DNA of 64,000 bases from Paracyclopina nana. Lineage: Eukaryota; Arthropoda; Copepoda; Cyclopoida; Cyclopettidae. The stretch lies in the NCBI GenBank assembly GCA_019096065.1, contig JAGUCH010000009.1, positions 5,342,001 to 5,406,000 of the forward strand, given 5' to 3'. The notes beneath the pieces are model-generated. The model was not told the DNA's origin and did no database searches. It saw only the letters and a list, made by a program, of their open reading frames with translations. Shown here in pieces: positions 3,510 to 57,656 of the stretch. How positions within the stretch are numbered: position 1 is the stretch's first letter; each line of letters begins with the position of its first letter. The position numbers and the translations under genes were made by a program.

Positions 3510-5156
3510 TAAGTAATTGTTCAAAGGGGCTGACACACTTTTTAAAAAAACACCTCATTGTTAGCAGGAAAATGGATCAATCATCCTGTATCAATCACGA
3601 TTTAATTTATGACTTGAAGTGACTGGTAAAAAAGGGAAACTAGGCGTTGAAAAAGTATAGACTATTCTATGTAGCAATGTATCAGGTAATCTATGAAACT
3701 GCTGCACATTTCTCGCCCATTCCGATTTTATATGTACACCATATGGAAACCTTGAACCATGCAGGTTTGCGAAACCAGATTGACCCTTCATCCAGCAGTG
3801 CCAAAACAGATTTCAAATCAGGGTGGAAGATCATCATCATCATCTTGGTTGCAATAACATATGAGGAATTCCTCTTCCACTTGCTAATGCAAAAATTTCA
3901 ATTTTAATCTGCGCACAAAAACTACTTTAAATATTTTTTACGCCTTAAAATATCATGAAATTATTTGTGCTCCCAACGCATCTAGGAGCTAATGAATTGT
4001 GAAATTCATTTCCAGTCATAACCATTTCCATTTGGTTCATGAGGCTCCAATAAAAATGAAGGTCGAACCGTGACTGATGACCTCTTGAGGAATTTCTTCC
4101 ATACAGAAATTAAACTCATGTCAACCCACCAAAAGGCAAACGCACACACACGCAGCATTTGCATAATCCTGTTTTGTGTGAGGTCTGTCAACTTCTTGGA
4201 GAAGACGAAACCGAAATATTTAGAGGCCAAATTCAGTATTGGCAGCCAAGGTAACAACTCGTGATCATCGAGTGTGAAGTTAATTGGTGATTAGCCTATA
4301 TTTTCAAGAGAAAACTCTCTGTGCATATCTAATTGAATCTCGGGAAAACGTTCTGAAATCCAGCCAGTTTTCTCTGCCAAAGCCCAATATATATATAATT
4401 CTTGCGGAATTCTCAGCTATTTTGAATTTCCAGCCTCAAAAAACAATGCTCGGTTCAATGGTCCAGACAAGAAAATGAGCAAGTAAAATGTTAGCACCAT
4501 TAAAGTGTCACAGCTGGTGGTGACTTTTTTCTCTCTCAGATGAATCCTATTATGATTCAAATTAAAACATAAAATGTTAATTGTCAATGTCATCAGACTC
4601 CAAGTCATGCAAATGAGAAACTTTTTCCACGAAGATCGCAGAGAGCAGGAAGAACATCGTCTTCGTGCATTTTTCACTTGACACACAACACACGTACAAA
4701 GCTAGCAAATGATGTAGAAGGAAAAATGCTTCATGAAATTAGAATTTTTTTTCGGAATAAGGTTTCGCAAAGCTTTGGCATGCTACAGGATATGTGGGAA
4801 TTAATGAGCTAGTGCATCTTCCTACCACTTATTAGATTGATGATGATCAGACAATTTTTCCCTAGCTTCAAATCCTTGAAAGAATCCAATCAATGACTTT
4901 TTCTGCACTGCACAGTGGGTTTATTTGCCGATTTCACGCGCGCGGAAAAAAGTCGCGAAATCAACGTAGCGGTAAGCTAAAAATATGCCATTCTGGCACC
5001 CGGGAGAGCAAGTAAGAGCAGCCAATTCTGGTGGATTATCAATTTATGCTATTAGCTGGACATCCCTGACTTGGTCACTCAATTGGAGTCGTTTGGAATC
5101 AAAAGTTATAGGAGATTCAATTTTTGCTCAAATTGTGCAAAGTTGCTGTTCTACTA
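3510..5156. other. Intergenic DNA, no gene recognised
   Basis: Several 60-90 residue open frames occur on both strands around 3.6-4.7 kb, but none has recognisable family motifs or consistent splice signals. The DNA is AT-rich with short microsatellites. I see no structured RNA. Confidence 0.6.
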
Positions 5157-5548
5157 GGGCGATCCCATATTCGAATTTTAAGTCAAGTTACGTTGCTAAA
5201 ACAGCAACCTTACTTGATCAGTTAAGTTCAGCTAGTTCTAGCCAAGTTCGGTTCGTTTTAGCAATGTTCAGTTGACCGCTGAGCTGACACGCCAACGCGT
5301 TGTACATCAGCAGCTGATGAGCAAAGTTAGCTTTCCTCAATTGAGCGAGCTTCAGTTACTACGCATATGAGAACACTTTTGAAGCTAAGTTCAGTTTGGC
5401 AACTGAACTTAGCTGGGCAAGTAAGCTAGTACTACATAAAATCAAGCTAAGTTAAGTTCTACCTACATAAATATCTGGGAACGGAACTGAACTGAACTTA
5501 ACTTTTTACCTAACTTAACTTGACTAACAGGTCAATATGGGAACGCCC
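5157..5548 (+). mobile_element. TA-target MITE, family A copy 1
   Basis: A 392-bp element with terminal inverted repeats GGGCGATCCCATATT at left and the complement of GGGCGTTCCCATATT at right, flanked by TA on both sides. This fits a Tc1/mariner-type insertion. Much of the interior is itself inverted, made of AAGTTAAGTT-like words. A near full-length copy lies inverted at 28319-28711. Confidence 0.8.
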
Positions 5549-39323: not shown

Positions 39324-40823
39324 ATGGCGGCTCCGTACGACGCTGGACCCGGAGGCTACCCACCTTATGGAGCACCTGTTATGAATCAGCCTCAGCCTGG
39401 AGGAATGTATCCTCCTCCTCCGCAATATGGAGGAGGTTATGGACCTCCTCCTCCAGGACCCGGAGGCTATGGACCACCTCCACCTGGCCCCGGAGGCTAC
39501 GGACCGCCTCCACCTGGACCTGGAGGATACGGACCACCTCCTCCTGGACCTGGAGGGTATGGACCTCCACCAGGATCCATGATGCAACCCGCCAATGTTC
39601 CCCCTGGATTGGAGTATTTACTTCAGGTAAAGGCAAAAAAAGGAATCCGAAAGATGGAGTAGTTATTTGTTTTCCCAGAAATTGCGTTTTGTTGCCAATG
39701 TTTTACCCCAATTGACCGTCAAAAATGCCAAAAAAGTACATAGTTGAAAAATCCACTTCTGGTGTTTTACTCCTTCTCAATCCTTTTGGTAATGAGAAAA
39801 ACGATTTAACTTAGCATCTTGATCAAGTTATGTCATGCTTTTAAGAGGAAGTTGAATGAGTCATGCATTGTTTTCAGATTGACAACTTGATCGTTAAGCA
39901 AAAAGTGGAATGGCTGGAAGCACTCTTGGGTTGTGAAACCAAGAACAAATACAAAGTCCTGAACACAATGGGCCAAGAAATATTTGATGCCGTCGAAGAG
40001 ACTGACTGTTGCACGCGGAATTTTTGCGGCCCCAACCGACCGTTTGACTTGTCCATTTCCGATCCACGTGGAAACGAGCTGATCCATTTGTACAGGCCAT
40101 TGAGGTGTTCATCTTGCTGGTTTCCATGCTTCCTACAGGTGTTGGAAGTCTACTCGCCTCCGGGAAATCTGATTGGAACTGTCGAACAAGAATGGTATTT
40201 TTTTTAAATTAATCAAGCAATATCTTGAGCAAAAACTTGCATTAAGTTATTCAGTCAAAAAATGCATTTTTCTTCAATGCCACGCTCTGAATGTTGAAGG
40301 TCACTTAAAATATTGCACAAATTAGGCCGATGAAAGTTTTTAAAAAGTTTATACGAAAATTGTGGCGTGAAAGCAACAAAAGGAGATGCTAACAAAGTTG
40401 TTCACTCAAAGTTTTGGTATAGAGGCTTCTTTTCATCTACGTAATTATACCAAAAAAAAATGCAATTTTGTAACTTGTGTTCATTACAGGTCACTGCTAG
40501 CACCAAAGTACAGCATCAAGGATGCTCAAGGCCAAGTGGCCTTGACGATTGAAGGCCCCATTTGCACCTACAGCATCTGCGGCGATGTCGAGTTTCAAGT
40601 TTTGTCTCCTGATGGTTCCACTGAGGTGGGGAAAATCAGCAAGCAGTGGAGTGGCCTTCTTCGTGAGGCCTTCACTGACTCTGACATTTTCGGGATCAGC
40701 TTCCCCATCGATCTGGATGTTCGCATGAAAGCTGTCTTGCTCGGCGCTTGTTTCCTCATTGATTTCAATTACTTTGAGAAAACGAGTAACAGCGAGCATG
40801 ACAGGCCTGGAATGCTCGACTAA
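39324..40823 (+). CDS. PLSCR: Phospholipid scramblase
   Basis: Exons 39324-39626, 39878-40194 and 40490-40823 encode 317 residues. The protein moves phospholipids between membrane leaflets in a calcium-dependent manner, or acts in the nucleus or endolysosome in some members. Residues 1-100 form a Pro/Gly-rich domain with about five tandem copies of a GGYGPPPPGP unit. The core then shows CCTRNFCGPNRPF, the RCSSCWFPCFLQ palmitoylation-type cluster and KQWSGLLREAFTDSD. The calcium-binding loop (Asp270 to Leu282, D.D.F...FP.DL) precedes the C-terminal hydrophobic helix MKAVLLGACFLIDFNYF (286-302). Intron 1 carries a partial copy of the AGATGGCGC repeat. It is followed in tandem, 417 bp later, by the ZnT-like gene. 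Confidence 0.93.
39660..39775 (+). repeat. AGATGGCGC repeat, copy lacking the ends
   Basis: Retains the family interior (GACCGTCAAAAATGCC and AAATCCACTTCTGGT) but not the terminal cores. It lies in scramblase intron 1. Confidence 0.5.
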
Positions 40824-47001: not shown

Positions 47002-47075
47002 GCTCCTATGGCTTAATGGTTAGAGCGCTGGGCTCTTAATTCAGCAGTCTAGGGTTCAAACCCCAGTCATTCCTC
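47002..47075 (+). repeat. tRNA-like sequence 1 (Lys-CTT-like, degenerate)
   Basis: D arm, anticodon arm with loop CTCTTAA and TTCAAAC T loop are recognisable, but the acceptor stem does not pair and the T stem has a mismatch. An oligo-T run follows, as for a polymerase III terminator. Judged a tRNA pseudogene or SINE head. Confidence 0.55.
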
Positions 47076-49511: not shown

Positions 49512-52500
49512 ATGGGTATGAAAAAGCGGCAGAAAGGATCGGAGAACCAGCATAATAATGGTAAGATTAATATCATGGCAAGAATTTGGCGCGATTGCTT
49601 GGCAGCCCATTTATCTTGCACATTTAAGCTCGCTAGCTTGCCAACTTGCCTCTCGTGGGATTGCAATTCATGTTTTTTGCCCTAGCTCTCTCTCTCTGCC
49701 ATTTTCGTGCAATTTCGGCGCAGCAATTGTTGCCATAAATCAGAATTTCCCACTCAGCCACTACACATACTTGTGCCATCCAATCAAGGCCATAAATCTA
49801 GCCTGTCTATTAGCAGCTTCCTCTTCTGGAGTAGCTGAAAAAACGAGTCTCCCAAGGGAGCCTTGTTTTCTTTCTCCTGTTATTTTTTTTGCAATAAAGG
49901 CCCACCTTGTCAACAACTGCCAAGTGAATTTGACATATGGGTTGTGCAAAATAAGGATTACCTTTATTGCACATGCAAAGTAAATACTTTTGGCTTTTTT
50001 GGTGACCGAATGGCGATATTAGCATGAACTACCACGCAAGCTCCAATGAAAACAAATCGCTGCGCCATCTCGCGGACTTGCTCCAATCTTGCCTCTAAAT
50101 CAAGCTCACGTTTAACACAGAGTCTTGCCTCAATTGAATTATGGAGTGAATTTGAAAAAAGCCGAAGAAGTTGTAAAATGAAGAATCAAGCAATATAGTA
50201 ATGTGTCAGGTTATTTCCCAAGGGCTTAGAAAGTCTCTCGAGAGATGTGGGGGGAATATGATGCGTTTGACAGCTGCTCTTCAAAAAGACTGCATAAAAT
50301 CATGTTTCAGATACTTCAATGGAGAAGGAAGCTTCAGCCGATCCGGAATTCTTTCGTAATCTTTGGCCTCCGGAAGCGAACCATCATCGCGTCACGCACA
50401 AATTTCGCTGTTTTCAGCGGACCAAAATAAGGTAAATTTCCAAGCTTCCAAGCTTAATTGGTACTCTCTTGGAACGCTGCTTTCTATCTGTGAATTGCGT
50501 GTTCAGTGATGCCGAAACGTGTAATTTATAGCCTCAACCCTCGAAATGGCTCGAACATTTGTGAAAACGGAGCGAGCGACAAATCGAAGAAAATATCCGA
50601 GGATCTCCTGGATTTCGATGGGAAGCTCAAGGCACATCGTCCTGGTCATGACAATGTTATGATGAAGAAGCCATTCTTTATCAGCACCCTTCGAGTCAGT
50701 TGGAATCTTATCGAGGCAGAAATCTTGCACAATCCTGGTAAGCAGCCAAACGAAAGTTCCATTTTGCGAAAGCACAAGTACTTTCTTATTTTTACCATTT
50801 TTTGTCCCTGTTTTTTAAGACATATTTAACAGTATCAGAGCATTAATAATGCCTTGTTCATGTATTAAGAAAGGGAAAAAATTGTCTTTAGGAAAAGTGA
50901 ATCTGCTGCTGACTGCCGCTCTACGAGTTTAGCTTGGGACCGAGCAGCGTTTTTAATGGCTATTTTCGCAATTTTGTGTCATCGTTTTCTGCATTTTTTC
51001 AAGACAAACTAGCTATCTTCACAATTCTCATGAAAAAAGATGAAATTCAACTATTGATTCAGCTCAAAAGGACTAATTTGCAAAGCACTTGATAACCAAA
51101 ATTAGATTTGTTTACTTTCAAGTTGGCTTAGAGTCGATCTGATTTTTTTGTATCAGCTGGCGCTTGTCATAAGACAATTTTTTTCCTTTCATTTAGGCGC
51201 TTTTCGTGCATTTTCTTAAGGAGTTTTGGGACTAGATGAACAGGACATGAGGAAAATTGTTGGAAAAATAGCTATTGCCAAAAAATGCCCCAATGAGTAT
51301 GCTCGTACAGATTAATTTTTGAGCTGTTTTGATGAGAAGTCAGATCTGGAGATTCGCTCAGTCAGCAAATAAAAAACACTTGGCAAATTGTAGCGCCCCT
51401 TTTCTATGACGCAGCAACTCTCACACCAAATGAAAAAAATATCGCAAGAAAATCCCCGTAGGAGCTAAGCTTCATTTTTTGCTCTAGCTGACCTTGATTC
51501 ACATAAAAACTAGATGGGAGATAATCTCAAAGTGTTGGCATTTGCAAAGAAAAGCTTCATATTGTGCTCAATTCCTTTGTGTCCGTTATTGTTGCTAAGA
51601 AAATCACTCAAAAGGTTGTAGCTCTATTACCTAACTAAATTGAGAGAATTTCGTCTACATTCACAATTGAGGCGAGTGTAACAATAACAATCCACGTAAG
51701 CAGGTATTTTCCAGCTTTCCATCTTCACGTTAAAATTGACATCCTCCAGAATGATTGCCAAGACTTTCACATTCTTCTAAACTGGCTAGTTCTGCCTACA
51801 TGAAGATCTCGAGGGCAATCAATTTTGGCCAGATTTCCGGATAGTAGATATCCTCGAGATCTACAGGATAAAGTACCAACTGCAACTTTTTTGCATCTGC
51901 GTTCGTCCACTCACAACTTTTGCTGGAAATTGATTTGCATTCTGCGTAGTTTTTCATAGGGACTCCTTTTATTTGGCAGGAGTTCATCAAAGGGACCAAT
52001 GCAATGCTTGGTGATGAAAGCCCCTAAAATCGAATTCTTTCTTTACAGATAGCTTCGACATGGGCTTCGATATCCAACACTACTACTCTTTGCACCAAAG
52101 TTTGACCCTTGAGGATTTGGCCAAAGCCAGCTCGAAGCACACTCTAAAAGGCCTAGTGAAAGTCATTAACAAAGTGAGTAGCTCAAATTGGAAACCTGAT
52201 GGACTCACTGCTATAACTACAGTGAAAAAACAGCTATAGCTGCCATCCAATCGAGCTTCATCAGTTGGCTACTACGTAAAATGTGTGCTTCAAATATTGA
52301 CTTTTGAAAGAGGCTTTACTTTTACATAAAAAGCTCCAAATTGTCAGCAGCAGAATATAGAGTACATAAGATTTGCGCCAATAATCCGCAAGATGGAGTT
52401 TCGTTTTTCGCCAATTGGCAGTCAAAAAAGCCAAAAGTAATGCATAGCCGATAATCCACGTCTGGCATTTCCAACCCCTGCGACTGTGGCGCCATCCTCC

Positions 52501-55500
52501 AAAGTGGCGGTGAAAAACTAAATCTCAACAAATATGCATTTTCTAGAGGTCGCAACACTATACACGCTTCCTTTTGATGCAGGTTTTGAAGCACTTGGAA
52601 GACCTCTCTGAGGTGGACGACTACCTCCGGTTCGTGGGGAGGCTTCATGATGTGGCTGGAGTCGATCCGAGGTTCCTCGACGTGACTGGCCTCGCCTTTT
52701 GCCATGCACTCGACCAACTTGACCAACTTGACCAGAGGGGCTTGTGGAACTCACAAGTCAAAGACACCTGGCAAACTTTCTTTCGGGTTGTAGTTCGAAC
52801 CATGAAAAGGGGCTATGCCACTTGTGGGCCAGCGTCCAAAAACCTCGTCCTCTTCAGCGAGCAAAAAAGTCTCATCACCGAGGTATGCCTTTTTGCCATG
52901 CAATGCGCCAAAGGCGTAAAGTTGCTAGATTCGCAGCGCCATCTAGCCAGGAAACTTGGGCAAGTACATTTGACAGGGCTGCACTACATAGGCGATCACA
53001 AATGGGCTATTTTTCGGCTTTTGGTGCCCAATTCTTAAAACTTTACTAATATGACATAATCTACGGATAAAATGGGCCACCCTTTCAAGCCATAAAACCA
53101 TATGCAACTCACGCAAATTTCCAAGCTTTTCATTGTTGAAACCAAATTTTTCCAGCCTCGCTCCGCTGATCAGCCAATCAAATTTCAGCTCGTGATCACG
53201 TGACAGGTTTCGCGCGCGACAGTTTTTCCAAATATACCTGCCCAAAAAGCGCCATCTAGCGAAAAAGTTTGTCCCTCCAATGGCTTATTGCGTATGCGAC
53301 GTCAATGTGCGGTCAAATCCAGGATATGTCACAGGAAATACAAGCCATGCTACTACACTTGTCACATTACATTTTATGCATATATGAATCAATGAATGGA
53401 GATGTATATATAGTTCTGTTTTATGCAATGAGGAGAGTCACTTTGCATAGTATGACGAGCTTTTTTACTCAATATGCCTTTTTTCGGGCTTTTGAGAGCA
53501 TACTATTATTGGAGGTGTTCCAAAACAAATATATGCATGCTGCTACTTTATCAGCATATATCCCTTATTTACACTATTTTTCGCCAGATAGTCGCAGCTT
53601 ACCTAATACATAACGAGCAGTAAAAATTGCTTACAAAGCTATCTGTCCAATAATGTAATGCACTTTTTGCTTCACCCTGCTTTTACTCATCGAATATGCT
53701 CAGCAGGAAACCAAAAGCATATTCTATTCATTCTCTGTTGAAACATGTAATGTAAAATTGTACTTTAGAAGCCTGAAGGTTTCACATTCAGAGCCTGTGA
53801 GTAGTCTTATTTTAGAGTGAATCTATAATTTGCGTATCTACCTTGGCTTTCTTTTTTTCCTTGCGCAATCAACCAATTAGAAAATCCAGCTTAGCCACCA
53901 AGATTTGAGCTCGAGGAAATCATGTAATGATCGCATTATATTGGCATAAGTAATATTCGTTTTTTACATTATAGGTTTGGGCCACGGTGCAAGACCACAT
54001 TTTGCACTACTTGAACAACAGCCTACTCCTACCTCTTGTGATGCGAAGCAATCGTTCCATTCTCAAGTATTTCGTCACTTACGAGTCCACTGTGTCCTGC
54101 CTCAAATTCGACGGCAGCTCGGGAATTTCCACGCTGGAAAAGACCAAACATGGCTGCTGGTTTCTCACCGAAGTTCTCGCCAAAATCATCCCAAACTTGG
54201 ACTGCATTGAACAATGCCAAGACTATCTCAAGGAGCTGGGAGCGAAGCACCAAGAATATGGCGTCCGTAGGGAGCATTTGGACCTTTTGGCACTCGTCTA
54301 TTGCGCTGCCGTGAGGGGAGTGGTGGCCACTCAAGGTAATTTCAAATACACTTTAGATACCACAGGAAATACCCTTGCCAATTCAAGCAATGACGGTAGG
54401 CTTAAAAATACCACCATATGTATTTCCGGTATTATGCATAGGATGTGAGCTATGCTAAGTGAGGTTATTTCTGGCTCATTGTCGTGGGAGTTACGATAAG
54501 TATGCAACGTGAGCTGTCTTAAAATATTTTACGTAAAATAACTGGGGGATATTCTAGCATTTTTGCAATATTAATCCATTGTGGCGCGGTGTAGTCCAAG
54601 GTAAAACACGCGCGGTTAAAGTAATCCGCTAGATGGCGCAGCAATTTGTTTTGGTGGAAATTGTGTGCGAGACGAGACTATTTTCGCCATTCAGCCGTCA
54701 AAAATGCCAAAAAACAATATTTGCAAAGAAAACCACTTCTGGTGGCACTGTACGCCTCTATGGTGGCGCCATCTAAAGAGAAGTGTAAAAACACCTAAAA
54801 GCTATAGTTATTTTACTTATTACATGTGCAGCACCTGACTGCCAATTTTTATTTATCTATTTATTTCGTTATCAATTAGATGGTAGATGATTTCGAATTG
54901 GAAATCCCTGAATGCAAAGTTTCTTTCTCATGGGACTTGGCTTGAGTACACGTGACTTGGGAATTAACAACATCAGTATGATGAGGGCCACAAAATATGA
55001 AACTTGCGTTACCACTTTAAATTACTGAGGAACAGCTTTTGAAAAGCTTTTAGGAAGGTTTTTCCTAATTGCTGTGGCCTGCCTTTTAATTTTAGACCTC
55101 GCCCAATTTCAATTACTTTTTGCTGCCCTCTTTTTAAAGGCCTCATCCCGAATGATACGGTGAAAGTGCAATGGATAATAAAACCGAAAGGTCTACTGCC
55201 TTTGGATTCTGGGCACGATCGAGAGTAATTGTGAAAACTTAAAAATACAACCTTCGCAGATTCACCAGCCTTCCTTTCTTTTGGTCCACTAAAATTATCC
55301 AATTAAAATGTTTTAAGGGTAAAGGCCAATTCCAGAGAAGGTCGATAATTCAAATATGATAAGTATGATTTTAATTTGGCATTTATGTTTGAATGAGATA
55401 AGTACTATATAGGGTTACCTAGAATATGAAAGAAATTAGAGCATGACTCGCGGCATATGGAACTCGTCAACTTGCTGATCACGCCAAATCCTGGCCTTGT

Positions 55501-56089
55501 AGAGATGACAAAAAGGCTGCTGCATCACTGATGATATAATTAACCTACCTGCTCAAGGTCAGCCTTAACCTTGAGCTAAAAACCTTTGTAGAACCCAGTA
55601 ATACTATTATTCTCCCACGTTTTTTGCAGAGCTGCTCACTTACACAAAATGAGGCTATTGTTTCAGTCAAGCTGTAATTAAAATGGCTTTTTTTCAGGTG
55701 TGAAAGGAGGGCCTTTGTCAGATACAACTCGAGCTTGGTTCAGCCTGCTCAAGTTCATTGTGACCAACATGAAAAGTGGCTACAGCGATGAGGGATTTCC
55801 AGAGCTGGCGACCGAACTTTGTGACGATGACTTTGACGCGGTTGACGAGCAAGGTGGATGCCCAATGCATCACACCCTCGATGTGAGCAGCCCAGAAAGG
55901 GGCGGATGCAGCAGCAGAAACTCGAGCCTCAGCTCCGGAAACGAGGAGCATTTCCACGTTATGAAACGACGCAATGCTTACATCCAGATGGACGCAGGAT
56001 CTTCAGTGGATCCTCAGGAAATCTCAGGGATGCTGAAATCAGCTCCTCCGGGATTCAGCCGGTCAGCCAGACAATTTTCCCTACAATAG
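49512..56089 (+). CDS. Two-domain globin
   Basis: Proposed exons 49512-49560, 50311-50431, 50532-50737, 52049-52173, 52583-52882, 53975-54335 and 55698-56089 encode 517 residues. After ~100 hydrophilic residues without a signal peptide, globin domain 1 runs from STLRVSW (about 107) with E7 His156 and F8 His189 (VGRLHDVAGV). Domain 2 starts at LFSEQKSLITEVW (about 257), with E7 His326 (TKHG) and F8 His359 (LGAKHQEYGV). Both domains keep 33 residues between the two haem histidines, and both have a helix-H-like TMKRGY or NMKSGY end. An acidic, Ser-rich tail of ~80 residues follows. The protein should bind two haems and is probably intracellular. The first three exons are tentative; translation might instead begin near 50507. 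A repeat lies in introns 4, 5 and 6. Confidence 0.8.
49987..50074 (-). repeat. AGATGGCGC repeat, partial copy
   Basis: Minus strand reads CCGCGAGATGGCGCAGCG, then ATTTGTTTT, then CGCCATTCGGTC. This is the 5' half of the family. It lies in globin intron 1. Confidence 0.6.
50850..51247 (-). mobile_element. Harbinger-like MITE, copy B7
   Basis: TAA then TGCCTTGTTCATG at left, GATGAACAGGACA at right, with the family interior inverted relative to B1. It lies in globin intron 3. Confidence 0.65.
52386..52498 (+). repeat. AGATGGCGC repeat, diverged copy
   Basis: CCGCAAGATGGAG at left, CGCCAATTGGCAGTC and AATCCACGTCTGG inside, GTGGCGCCATCC at right. It lies in globin intron 4. Confidence 0.55.
52911..53290 (-). 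repeat. Interspersed ~375-bp repeat, family C copy 3
   Basis: Reverse-complement copy of 30384-30765, starting 28 bp after globin exon 5. The minus-strand open frame (52943-53245, 100 codons) includes [16 protein letters not shown]. Confidence 0.7.
54626..54775 (+). repeat. AGATGGCGC repeat, best full copy
   Basis: Starts CCGCTAGATGGCGCAGC and ends GGTGGCGCCATCTA, so the two ends carry the same core inverted. Interior landmarks are TTTCGCCATTCAGCCGTC, AAAATGCCAAAAA and AACCACTTCTGG. It lies in globin intron 6. Confidence 0.7.
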
Positions 56090-56867
56090 CAAAATAGTAC
56101 TACTCTCAGGATCCTTGCATTCGCTTCTTGTACCTGATGATATGAACCATCATTTTTTGTGAGTGGGAAAAATATGTTTTCCGTTCTGCTATTGAGTGCA
56201 AAAAAGAAGTCATCAACGTGACAAAAAGAACATTTTCGGGTGCTGAGAAGAGCATTTTCAACTTTACTATTTTATTACACACCAATGAAGTTATCCTTCA
56301 GTTTTGAGTCATGGTTGGACTTTGATGACTTTAGTGTTCTTCATGCGCTTCATCAAACCATCTTTTGATAAATTATTCATGTTAAAACATACACAACACA
56401 CTAAATATATATATACTATATAATAAAAGTGCAGCATTCGCATTTTACTTCAGAATACGTGACTTTCTTCTTGGTTGATAGATTTTTCGAGATTCTTCGG
56501 AGACAAATACTGGCCGCAACATCATCTTTTTCACTTTGTAAATATTTAGAGCACAACCTTCATTTTATTGTGTTATCTCGGACAAAGTGGAAGGACTCGG
56601 TTTCGCACTTCATTTAAGCAAACTAAAGAGAACTCACTGTTATAAAGATCTTTGGGGAAAGAGATTTTTGTCAAACTGCCTTCGGAAGAGACGAACAACA
56701 ACTCTTCTGAAATTGAGTCGAAAGCTACGTAGCTAGCTTTCATTGCATCTTTTAACTTACATGCTCAAAAGGGAAATGGTTATCATGTGTAATCAAGGCT
56801 ATAATATGAACGAGCTCAGGTCGACCGAATAGCGTCACATCACAAGGGGGCAAGCAGTGTTGAACTT
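56090..56867. other. Convergent globin/Ras64B intergenic region
   Basis: Presumed 3' UTRs of both genes, with AATAAAA-type signals in a TATATATA-rich stretch near 56405-56430. No gene is seen. Confidence 0.5.
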
Positions 56868-57656
56868 CTAGAGGATGGCACAGTTGTTCTTTTTTCGTCT
56901 AGCTCCCTTGCCAGAGTCCACGTGATTGGAGGCCACCGAGTCCGGCCTCTCCATGACTTGGAACCTTCGGACCAACCGAACCAGCTCGTGAAAGGCCTGG
57001 TCGACATTCATCCGCATTTTGGCACTGCATTCTATGTAAGGCACCTTTAGCTGGCGCGCCAAAGCATGAGCCTCGTCACAGGTGACCTAAAATGGCAGAT
57101 TATCAGCCTTCAAGAGTGACTATGATTTGGAAAGCCCTGAGGTTTGGTGACATCGTTTTCTCCTTTGGTTATGCAACCTACCACAATGACGATGCTTACC
57201 ATTCTTTGACTTTGAAGGTCGGCCTTGTTGCCCACCAGAATGACGGGGAACTCATCTCTGTCCTTGACCCTCAGGATTTCCCTGTGAAATCGAGCCACGT
57301 CCTCAAAGGACCTTCGCTCAGCGAGTGAGAAGACGAGCAGGAACCCTTCACCGGACCTCATGTACTGCTCGCGCATGGCAGAGAACTCCTCCTGGCCAGC
57401 AGTGTCCAGGATGTCCAGCTTGGCCACCTTGTCATCGATGACGCACTGCTTTTGATACGAATCTTCAATGGTGGGATCATAGTCGGTGACAAAGTAGCTC
57501 TGCAACAGGAGAATTCATAGCGTAAAGGACAGCTTGACAGGGGAAACTCCATACCTGGATGAACTGGATGGTGAGGGCGGATTTGCCCACCCCGCCGCCT
57601 CCGACGACCACCAACTTGTAGGTGGATGCCACCTGACGGCTGCTTTGAGAGTCCAT
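56868..57656 (-). CDS. Ras64B: R-Ras/TC21-type small GTPase (Ras64B)
   Basis: Exons (minus) 57656-57555, 57499-57200 and 57086-56868 encode 206 residues. It is a membrane-anchored GTP switch of the R-Ras/TC21 group. The P loop is GGGGVGKS (19-26), where the second-position Gly instead of Ala separates R-Ras types from classical Ras. Effector loop [20 protein letters not shown] and ECSAK boxes are all present. The C-terminus is basic (GARRKKNN) and ends CAIL, whose final Leu predicts geranylgeranylation. Introns are 55 and 113 bp. There is no deviation at the positions for catalysis. Divergent from LARP1 with 1.45 kb between start codons. Confidence 0.94.

What the first reader, a model, noticed from the sequence alone, without database searches (positions are those of the whole stretch)
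49512..56089. Single gene encoding two haem-competent globin domains
Two globin domains lie in tandem in one spliced frame; each keeps E7 and F8 His with identical 33-residue spacing (156/189 and 326/359). There is no signal peptide, unlike the secreted multidomain globins of branchiopods. The hydrophilic N-terminal extension and Ser-rich tail are unusual. One exon encodes the end of domain 1 together with the first helix of domain 2. I do not recognise this architecture among standard insect globins.
Basis: partly seen in the sequence, partly recalled or inferred. Interest (0 to 1): 0.72.

Follow-up and report, generated by a model that had tools for sequence, protein, structure and literature searches.

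The report
Two-domain intracellular globin gene
One animal gene appears to encode two linked globin domains (the haemoglobin fold) with no export signal seen; the same genome also carries a related three-domain gene, so this looks like a divergent branch of known multidomain globins rather than a new kind of protein.

Summary
The gene is real at sequence level: seven exons with GT..AG introns give one open frame of 517 residues, with His156/189/326/359 as stated. Both halves are globins: a profile built without this protein scores them 60.8 and 54.4 bits; the best of 5,000 shuffles reaches 7.6. Domain 2 alone misses Pfam's cut-off (19 against 22 bits).

Corrections. (1) The F8 histidines stand, but the 'E7' histidines are one residue off: spacing 33, against 32 in 8 of 8 comparison domains. 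Either His lies at E6 or the E helix bulges. (2) Domain 1 has Tyr at CD1 and a short B-C region. (3) Exon 2 lacks coding support, so the N-terminal extension is uncertain.

It is not alone: another contig of the same genome carries a three-domain globin, and all five domains share a G-helix Cys absent from the seven other globins compared. I read it as a non-secreted multidomain globin leaning to the neuroglobin/globin-X side, most likely a redox/NO/O2 scavenger or sensor (inferred). The organism remains unidentified.

The parts
49512..49560 (+). exon 1 (start codon; 16 codons)
   Evidence: open frame, GT donor; model frame has the best codon score of three, but only 16 codons
50311..50431 (+). 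exon 2 (N-terminal extension; doubtful)
   Evidence: AG/GT borders; no frame preferred by codon usage, model frame lowest of three by a small margin
50532..50737 (+). exon 3 (rest of extension, helix A of domain 1)
   Evidence: model frame best of three
52049..52173 (+). exon 4 (domain 1, B-C region to mid E helix)
   Evidence: model frame best; its 3' border VINK|VLKH, phase 0, is at the same alignment column and phase as an intron of the C3 globin
52583..52882 (+). exon 5 (domain 1 E-H, short linker, first part of helix A of domain 2)
   Evidence: highest codon score of the seven exons
53975..54335 (+). exon 6 (domain 2, rest of helix A to G)
   Evidence: joining the exon 5 part raises the domain 2 profile score from 51.6 to 58.5 bits
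55698..56089 (+). exon 7 (domain 2 helix H, Ser-rich tail, stop)
50671..52822 (+). globin domain 1, residues about 104-247 (interrupted by introns)
   Evidence: 60.8 bits over residues 128-247 with a profile built without it; Pfam 29 bits alone
52844..55795 (+). globin domain 2, residues about 255-420 (interrupted by introns)
   Evidence: 54.4 bits over residues 256-420; Pfam 19 bits alone, below cut-off
52138..52140 (+). His156 codon (distal side; E6 in ungapped register)
52646..52648 (+). His189 codon (F8, proximal)
54149..54151 (+). His326 codon (distal side; E6 in ungapped register)
54248..54250 (+). His359 codon (F8, proximal)
52700..52702 (+). Cys207 codon (G helix, shared with the three-domain gene)
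54302..54304 (+). Cys377 codon (G helix, shared with the three-domain gene)
56422..56427 (+). AATAAA, possible polyadenylation signal
   Evidence: read directly; not tested

Best explanation
One spliced gene encodes a protein of two covalently joined globin domains, with a linker of only about 9 residues, an uncertain hydrophilic N-terminal extension, no predicted signal peptide and a Ser-rich, mildly acidic tail. Shown by sequence: the open frame and splice borders, homology of both domains to globins, the two F8 histidines, and a related three-domain gene in the same genome. Inferred: the two genes come from one ancestral tandem-domain (or Cys-bearing) globin leaning to the neuroglobin/globin-X side of the family. 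Each domain holds haem through F8. Because the distal His is displaced by one residue, the haem is not bis-His capped in the usual E7 way, so the pocket is open or closed by a non-standard ligand. The protein works inside the cell as a two-haem O2/NO/redox scavenger or sensor, possibly regulated through its tail, and not as a blood oxygen carrier.
For: Single open frame across GT..AG junctions, no stop between domains. Two globin domains far above 5,000 shuffles. Helix A of domain 2 is completed only by the exon 5-6 junction, which adds about 7 bits. An E-helix intron of domain 1 shared in column and phase with the C3 globin. A three-domain relative on another contig, Pfam Globin 114.1 bits with three stretches each passing E 0.001. 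A G-helix Cys in 5 of 5 domains of the two multidomain proteins and 0 of 7 other globins compared (invariant also in the separate alignment). Neuroglobin is the best solved-structure match for the protein (E 6.7e-4) and for the five-domain profile (E 1.1e-13). No hydrophobic N-terminus in the model.
Against: No transcript, protein or haem data. No relative in another animal was reached: one genome-contig scan gave two short bacterial matches (38 and 43 residues) and one viral-contig scan gave none. In one search a non-symbiotic haemoglobin (1.3e-13) and haemoglobin V (3e-13) score almost as well as neuroglobin. The tree of 12 domains is mostly unresolved. Domain 1 has Tyr at CD1, His at CD4 and a short B-C region, so it may not hold haem. 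Exon 2 is unsupported, so a signal peptide on a different first exon is not excluded. The single-sequence model of exon 6 was uninformative (mean pLDDT 39.8).
Confidence: 0.55

Rival explanations
1. Non-haem regulatory protein: one or both domains kept the globin fold but lost normal haem chemistry, and the protein acts as a scaffold or as a sensor of something else.
For: Distal His out of register in both domains, CD1 Tyr and CD4 His in domain 1, shortened B-C region in domain 1, CD-loop insertion in domain 2.
Against: F8 His kept in both. Non-Phe CD1 residues, Tyr among them, occur in C. elegans putative globins (passages of PMC2228317), though those passages do not show that the Tyr one binds haem.
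Confidence: 0.2
2. A secreted or haemolymph two-domain haemoglobin of the Daphnia/Moina type whose first exon was mispredicted.
For: Crustacean multidomain haemoglobins are described as extracellular (passages of PMC4503718), and the 5' end is not supported here.
Against: No hydrophobic segment in the predicted N-terminus. Both solved-structure searches rank neuroglobin first. In the weak tree myoglobin, cytoglobin and Drosophila glob1 group together (support 91) without the two window domains, though domain 2 of the three-domain gene joins them with support 27. No Daphnia sequence was compared.
Confidence: 0.1
3. Two adjacent single-domain genes wrongly joined.
For: No transcript data; domain 2 alone is below Pfam's cut-off.
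Against: Helix A of domain 2 is split over exons 5 and 6 and only the splice restores it. In the three-domain gene one exon likewise runs from the H helix of domain 2 into the A helix of domain 3.
Confidence: 0.06
4. A decaying pseudogene.
For: Strong divergence between the domains (24% identical in the alignment) and an off-register distal His.
Against: No stop or frameshift in 517 codons. The model frame is preferred in 6 of 7 exons.
Confidence: 0.06

Closest known systems
Three-domain globin gene of the same genome (G000 C7, locus L009, minus strand)
   Same: Tandem globin domains, F8 His in all three, the G-helix Cys in all three, a run-on from the H helix of one domain to the A helix of the next within one exon
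   Different: Three domains; 32-residue E7-F8 spacing in all three; long acidic/Ser insert between domains 1 and 2; 5' end not found
Sea urchin two-domain 416-residue globin (XP_003725467.1) and 14-domain globin (XP_001199205.2), passages of PMC4527676
   Same: Tandem domains, unknown N-terminal part on the two-domain one, both cluster with neuroglobins in that paper
   Different: The second domain of the 416-residue protein lacks helices G and H; far larger sister protein; sequences not compared here
Daphnia/Moina two-domain and Artemia nine-domain haemoglobins, passages of PMC4503718 and PMC7771090
   Same: Tandem globin domains in one chain
   Different: Described as extracellular; Daphnia domains fall in the clade with vertebrate Hb/Mb/Cygb, whereas here neuroglobin is the best match and no signal peptide is predicted; sequences not compared here
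Barbatia intracellular di-domain haemoglobin, passage of PMC4503718
   Same: Two domains, intracellular
   Different: A bivalve haemoglobin forming high-molecular-weight complexes; sequence not compared here
Arthropod and vertebrate globin X / globin X-like (PMC7457136: abstract, passages and sections 12, 15, 16; PMC3176823: abstract)
   Same: N-terminal extensions; not secreted (attached to the cell membrane)
   Different: Single domain with CD1/E7/F8 highly conserved; this protein has two domains, lacks the E7 register and has Tyr at CD1 in domain 1

Membership tests
Globin superfamily (Pfam PF00042) | Profile match above the curated cut-off | tested here: met
   Whole protein 42.7 bits and domain 1 29 bits against 22; domain 2 alone 19 bits, below cut-off; own profile 60.8/54.4 bits
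Globin superfamily (Pfam PF00042) | Proximal His F8 | tested here: met
   Both domains
Canonical haem globin | Distal His at E7 | tested here: inconclusive
   His lies 33 before F8 where 8 of 8 comparison domains have 32; E6, or E7 with a one-residue bulge
Canonical haem globin | Phe at CD1 | tested here: not met
   Tyr in domain 1; Phe, so met, in domain 2
Secreted crustacean multidomain haemoglobin | N-terminal signal peptide | tested here: not met
   No hydrophobic segment in the predicted N-terminus; no signal-peptide predictor was run and the true first exon is uncertain
Globin X / globin X-like | N-terminal acylation motif | tested here: inconclusive
   Starts Met-Gly but position 6 is Arg, by my recalled rule a poor myristoylation site; no predictor was run
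Globin X / globin X-like | Introns B12.2 and G7.0 (plus E10.2 in GbX), per PMC7457136 section 15 | tested here: not met
   Introns lie at the A-B corner and between E17 and E18 of domain 1, in helix A and in the GH region of domain 2 (helix numbering from recalled myoglobin numbering)
Globin X / globin X-like | Clade membership | tested here: inconclusive
   12-domain tree mostly unresolved; no GbX or GbXL reference sequence was included
Androglobin | Calpain domain and permuted globin domain | tested here: not met
   Pfam finds Globin only in the whole protein at E up to 10; helices in normal order

The most novel reading that the evidence does not exclude
An animal lineage has evolved a family of intracellular multidomain globins on the neuroglobin/globin-X side (at least a two- and a three-domain gene), marked by a G-helix cysteine. 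In the two-domain member both distal histidines have shifted by one residue relative to F8, which would give a haem pocket geometry unlike that of canonical E7 globins.
Probability: 0.35. Interest if true: 0.6.

Novelty: new variant of a known kind. Interest (0 to 1): 0.4.

Why it matters
Many of the multidomain animal globins described in the papers seen here are oxygen carriers of body fluids or blood cells. A non-secreted two- and three-domain family leaning to the neuroglobin/globin-X side would be a natural experiment on what linking globin domains is good for when oxygen transport is not the task. If the displaced distal His is real in both domains, it offers a test of how fixed the E7 position is.

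Tried and rejected
Two separate genes: rejected because helix A of domain 2 spans the exon 5-6 splice. Androglobin: rejected, no calpain domain found and no permutation. An alternative start at the ATG near 50509 without exons 1-2: its 8 extra codons score negative, so neither model of the 5' end is supported. A longer exon 3 or 4 to fill the short B-C region of domain 1: reading the borders by eye gave no frame-consistent alternative; a microexon in intron 3 is not excluded. Other Pfam families: sub-threshold listings only (ATG5_HBR E 0.082 for domain 1, ADH_Fe_C E 0.036 for domain 2, both under their cut-offs).

Led nowhere: the structure model of exon 6 alone (mean pLDDT 39.8), not used for a fold search. 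One scan each of genome contigs and viral contigs for relatives. The bacterial promoter/terminator scan near the 3' end. The domain tree: W1+T3 69, W2+T1 62, the myoglobin-cytoglobin-glob1 group 91, the six other nodes 50 or less. Identifying the organism: the genome-search machine stayed busy, so searches for cuticle chitin-binding proteins, haemocyanin and 18S rRNA, a whole-genome search with this protein, and DNA upstream of the three-domain gene did not complete.

The exon-wise Pfam search of the genome gave 7 matches at five places and did not list the window gene itself; other divergent globins may be missed, so no claim is made that these are all the globins of the genome.

Full report
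What is there. The seven exons named in the parts list join into one frame of 518 codons including the stop (517 aa). All six introns begin GT and end AG, and His falls at 156, 189, 326 and 359. Exon borders at the first attempt were off by one and gave stops; the corrected set is used throughout. Exon 5 runs through the end of domain 1 and a short linker (about residues 246-254) into the first part of helix A of domain 2.

Are both halves globins? Pfam Globin scores the whole protein 42.7 bits with two stretches, in a call run at E up to 10. Cut apart, domain 1 scores 29 bits and domain 2 19 bits, against a cut-off of 22. It scores the two domains 60.8 bits (residues 128-247) and 54.4 bits (residues 256-420); the best of 5,000 shuffles of the same protein reached 7.6. 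The domain 1 match starts after helices A-B, which rest on a Trp in the alignment. Domain 2 rises from 51.6 to 58.5 bits when the exon 5 part of helix A is joined to it, which supports the exon 5-6 splice.

Coding evidence by exon. I scored codons with usage trained on 1,521 codons of other genes of the genome against introns of this gene. The model frame is the best of three in 6 of 7 exons. Exon 2 shows no preferred frame (-0.04, 0.00, and -0.06 bits per codon for the model frame; intron windows average -0.31 with a 95% point of 0.02), and exon 1 is only 16 codons. The N-terminal extension is thus the least certain part. An ATG near 50509 could be an alternative start, but its 8 extra codons score negative.

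The distal histidine. In eight comparison domains (three of the sister gene, three single-domain globins of this genome, human neuroglobin, human cytoglobin) the spacing is 32 in 8 of 8. Myoglobin and Drosophila glob1, which have indels between E and F, were not given to that call. In the ungapped register E8, E11, E15, E18 and E19 are L, L, I, V, L in domain 1 and C, L, L, I, I in domain 2, and Thr157/Gly327 fall on E7. Against this, E4 is Ser/Thr, and E12 is Thr in domain 2 (as in domain 1 of the sister gene). With the whole E helix shifted so that His is E7, E18 becomes Lys in both domains and E11 Gly in domain 1. A local one-residue insertion in the E helix is not excluded. With the E7 column masked, an insertion after E10 in domain 1 scores 37.2 against 34.6 for none; in domain 2 no insertion within E7-E10 is among the five best listed, so it scores 26.4 or less against 27.2 for none; in both domains an insertion further upstream scores best (38.4, 29.8). 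With the E7 column included, an insertion wins in both (45.2 against 32.6; 33.2 against 25.2), driven by the His itself. So in both domains the distal His is displaced or the helix is bulged. F8 is sound in both. CD1 is Tyr in domain 1, as in domain 3 of the sister gene, and Phe in domain 2.

Relatives. The exon-wise Pfam search of the window's genome (91.95 Mb, 10 contigs) gave 7 matches at five places and missed the window gene itself. One place, on contig C7, is a three-domain globin gene: six exons join in one frame of 572 residues with GT/AG borders; the 5' end was not found. Pfam gives Globin 114.1 bits with three stretches, each passing E 0.001. All five domains of the two multidomain proteins carry Cys at one G-helix column; none of the seven others does (C9, C3, C5, neuroglobin, cytoglobin, myoglobin, glob1); the separate alignment also has it invariant in the five. 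The domain 1 E-helix intron (VINK|VLKH, phase 0) lies at the same column and phase as one in the C3 globin. The GH intron of domain 2 shares a column with one in C3 but differs in phase. The A-B intron of domain 1 (phase 1) falls in a gapped region and is not at the column of the phase-0 introns of C9 and of the three-domain gene. The helix A intron of domain 2 is four columns from one in C3. The tree of 12 domains is weak: W1+T3 69, W2+T1 62, myoglobin-cytoglobin-glob1 91, the six other nodes 50 or less. I therefore do not claim that the two window domains arose by internal duplication.

Placement. The best solved-structure matches are neuroglobins: E 6.7e-4 for the protein and 1.1e-13 for the five-domain profile, with a non-symbiotic haemoglobin at 1.3e-13 and haemoglobin V at 3e-13 close behind (I recall these as plant and lamprey). 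That is a lean to the neuroglobin/globin-X side, not proof; no globin X sequence was compared. The introns do not match the B12.2/G7.0 pattern that PMC7457136 (section 15) gives for most arthropod globins.

What is in print. From the passages I read: sea urchin has a 416-residue two-domain globin with an unknown N-terminal part and a 14-domain one, both clustering with neuroglobins (PMC4527676). Crustacean multidomain haemoglobins are described as extracellular and Barbatia's di-domain one as intracellular (PMC4503718). Arthropod globin classes are HbL, GbX and GbXL (PMC7457136: abstract, passages, sections 12, 15, 16). Five searches with two-, three- or multi-domain globin terms showed, in the rows listed (20 of 79, 12 of 12, 12 of 146, 12 of 12 and 9 of 9 papers), no title or abstract opening that reports a GbX- or neuroglobin-side multidomain globin in an arthropod. 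The library holds only open-licence PMC papers and the species here is unknown, so this is weak evidence of absence.

How it probably works (inferred). With no export signal in the predicted N-terminus, F8 in both domains and an altered distal side, the most likely role is an intracellular haem protein that reacts with O2, NO or reactive oxygen, in line with the membrane-lipid protection or redox-sensing roles suggested for globin X (abstract of PMC3176823). The Ser-rich tail is a candidate for regulation. None of this is tested.

Noticed in passing
L009 (G000 C7:1243500-1251500), minus strand, about 4682-2537 in locus coordinates: Three-domain globin gene with an acidic/Ser insert between domains 1 and 2; domain 2 lacks the helix A Trp. 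Its 5' end was not found.
   Followed up: partly
L010 (G000 C1:3196500-3205500), about 4007-5516: Flavohaemoglobin-like open frames (globin 39.8 bits, NAD-binding domain 42.7 bits; best PDB match a flavohaemoglobin; best listed plasmid flavohaemoprotein 53.5% identical, all 335 plasmid records under 60%), split over several frames as if by introns, on a 17.8 Mb contig of this genome. Possibly acquired from microbes; not spliced or tested.
   Followed up: partly
L008 about 3838-4973 (+); L011 minus strand about 5040-3788: Two single-domain globins beginning MGN with Ala or Ser at position 6, which I recall as fitting N-myristoylation sites. The first lies about 164 kb from this gene on the same contig (about 115 kb before the window).
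   Followed up: no
window 50049-50076 and 54625-54652: 28-nt inverted repeat, 93% complementary, in introns 1 and 6, with other repeat pairs nearby; may be dispersed mobile-element remnants.
   Followed up: no
window 47008-47067: tRNA-family match just above Rfam's gathering score (33.4 against 29 bits) that ARAGORN does not call; possibly a tRNA-derived repeat.
   Followed up: no
window 40371-40820 (+) and 57113-57514 (-): Neighbouring genes: scramblase and Ras family open frames by Pfam.
   Followed up: no
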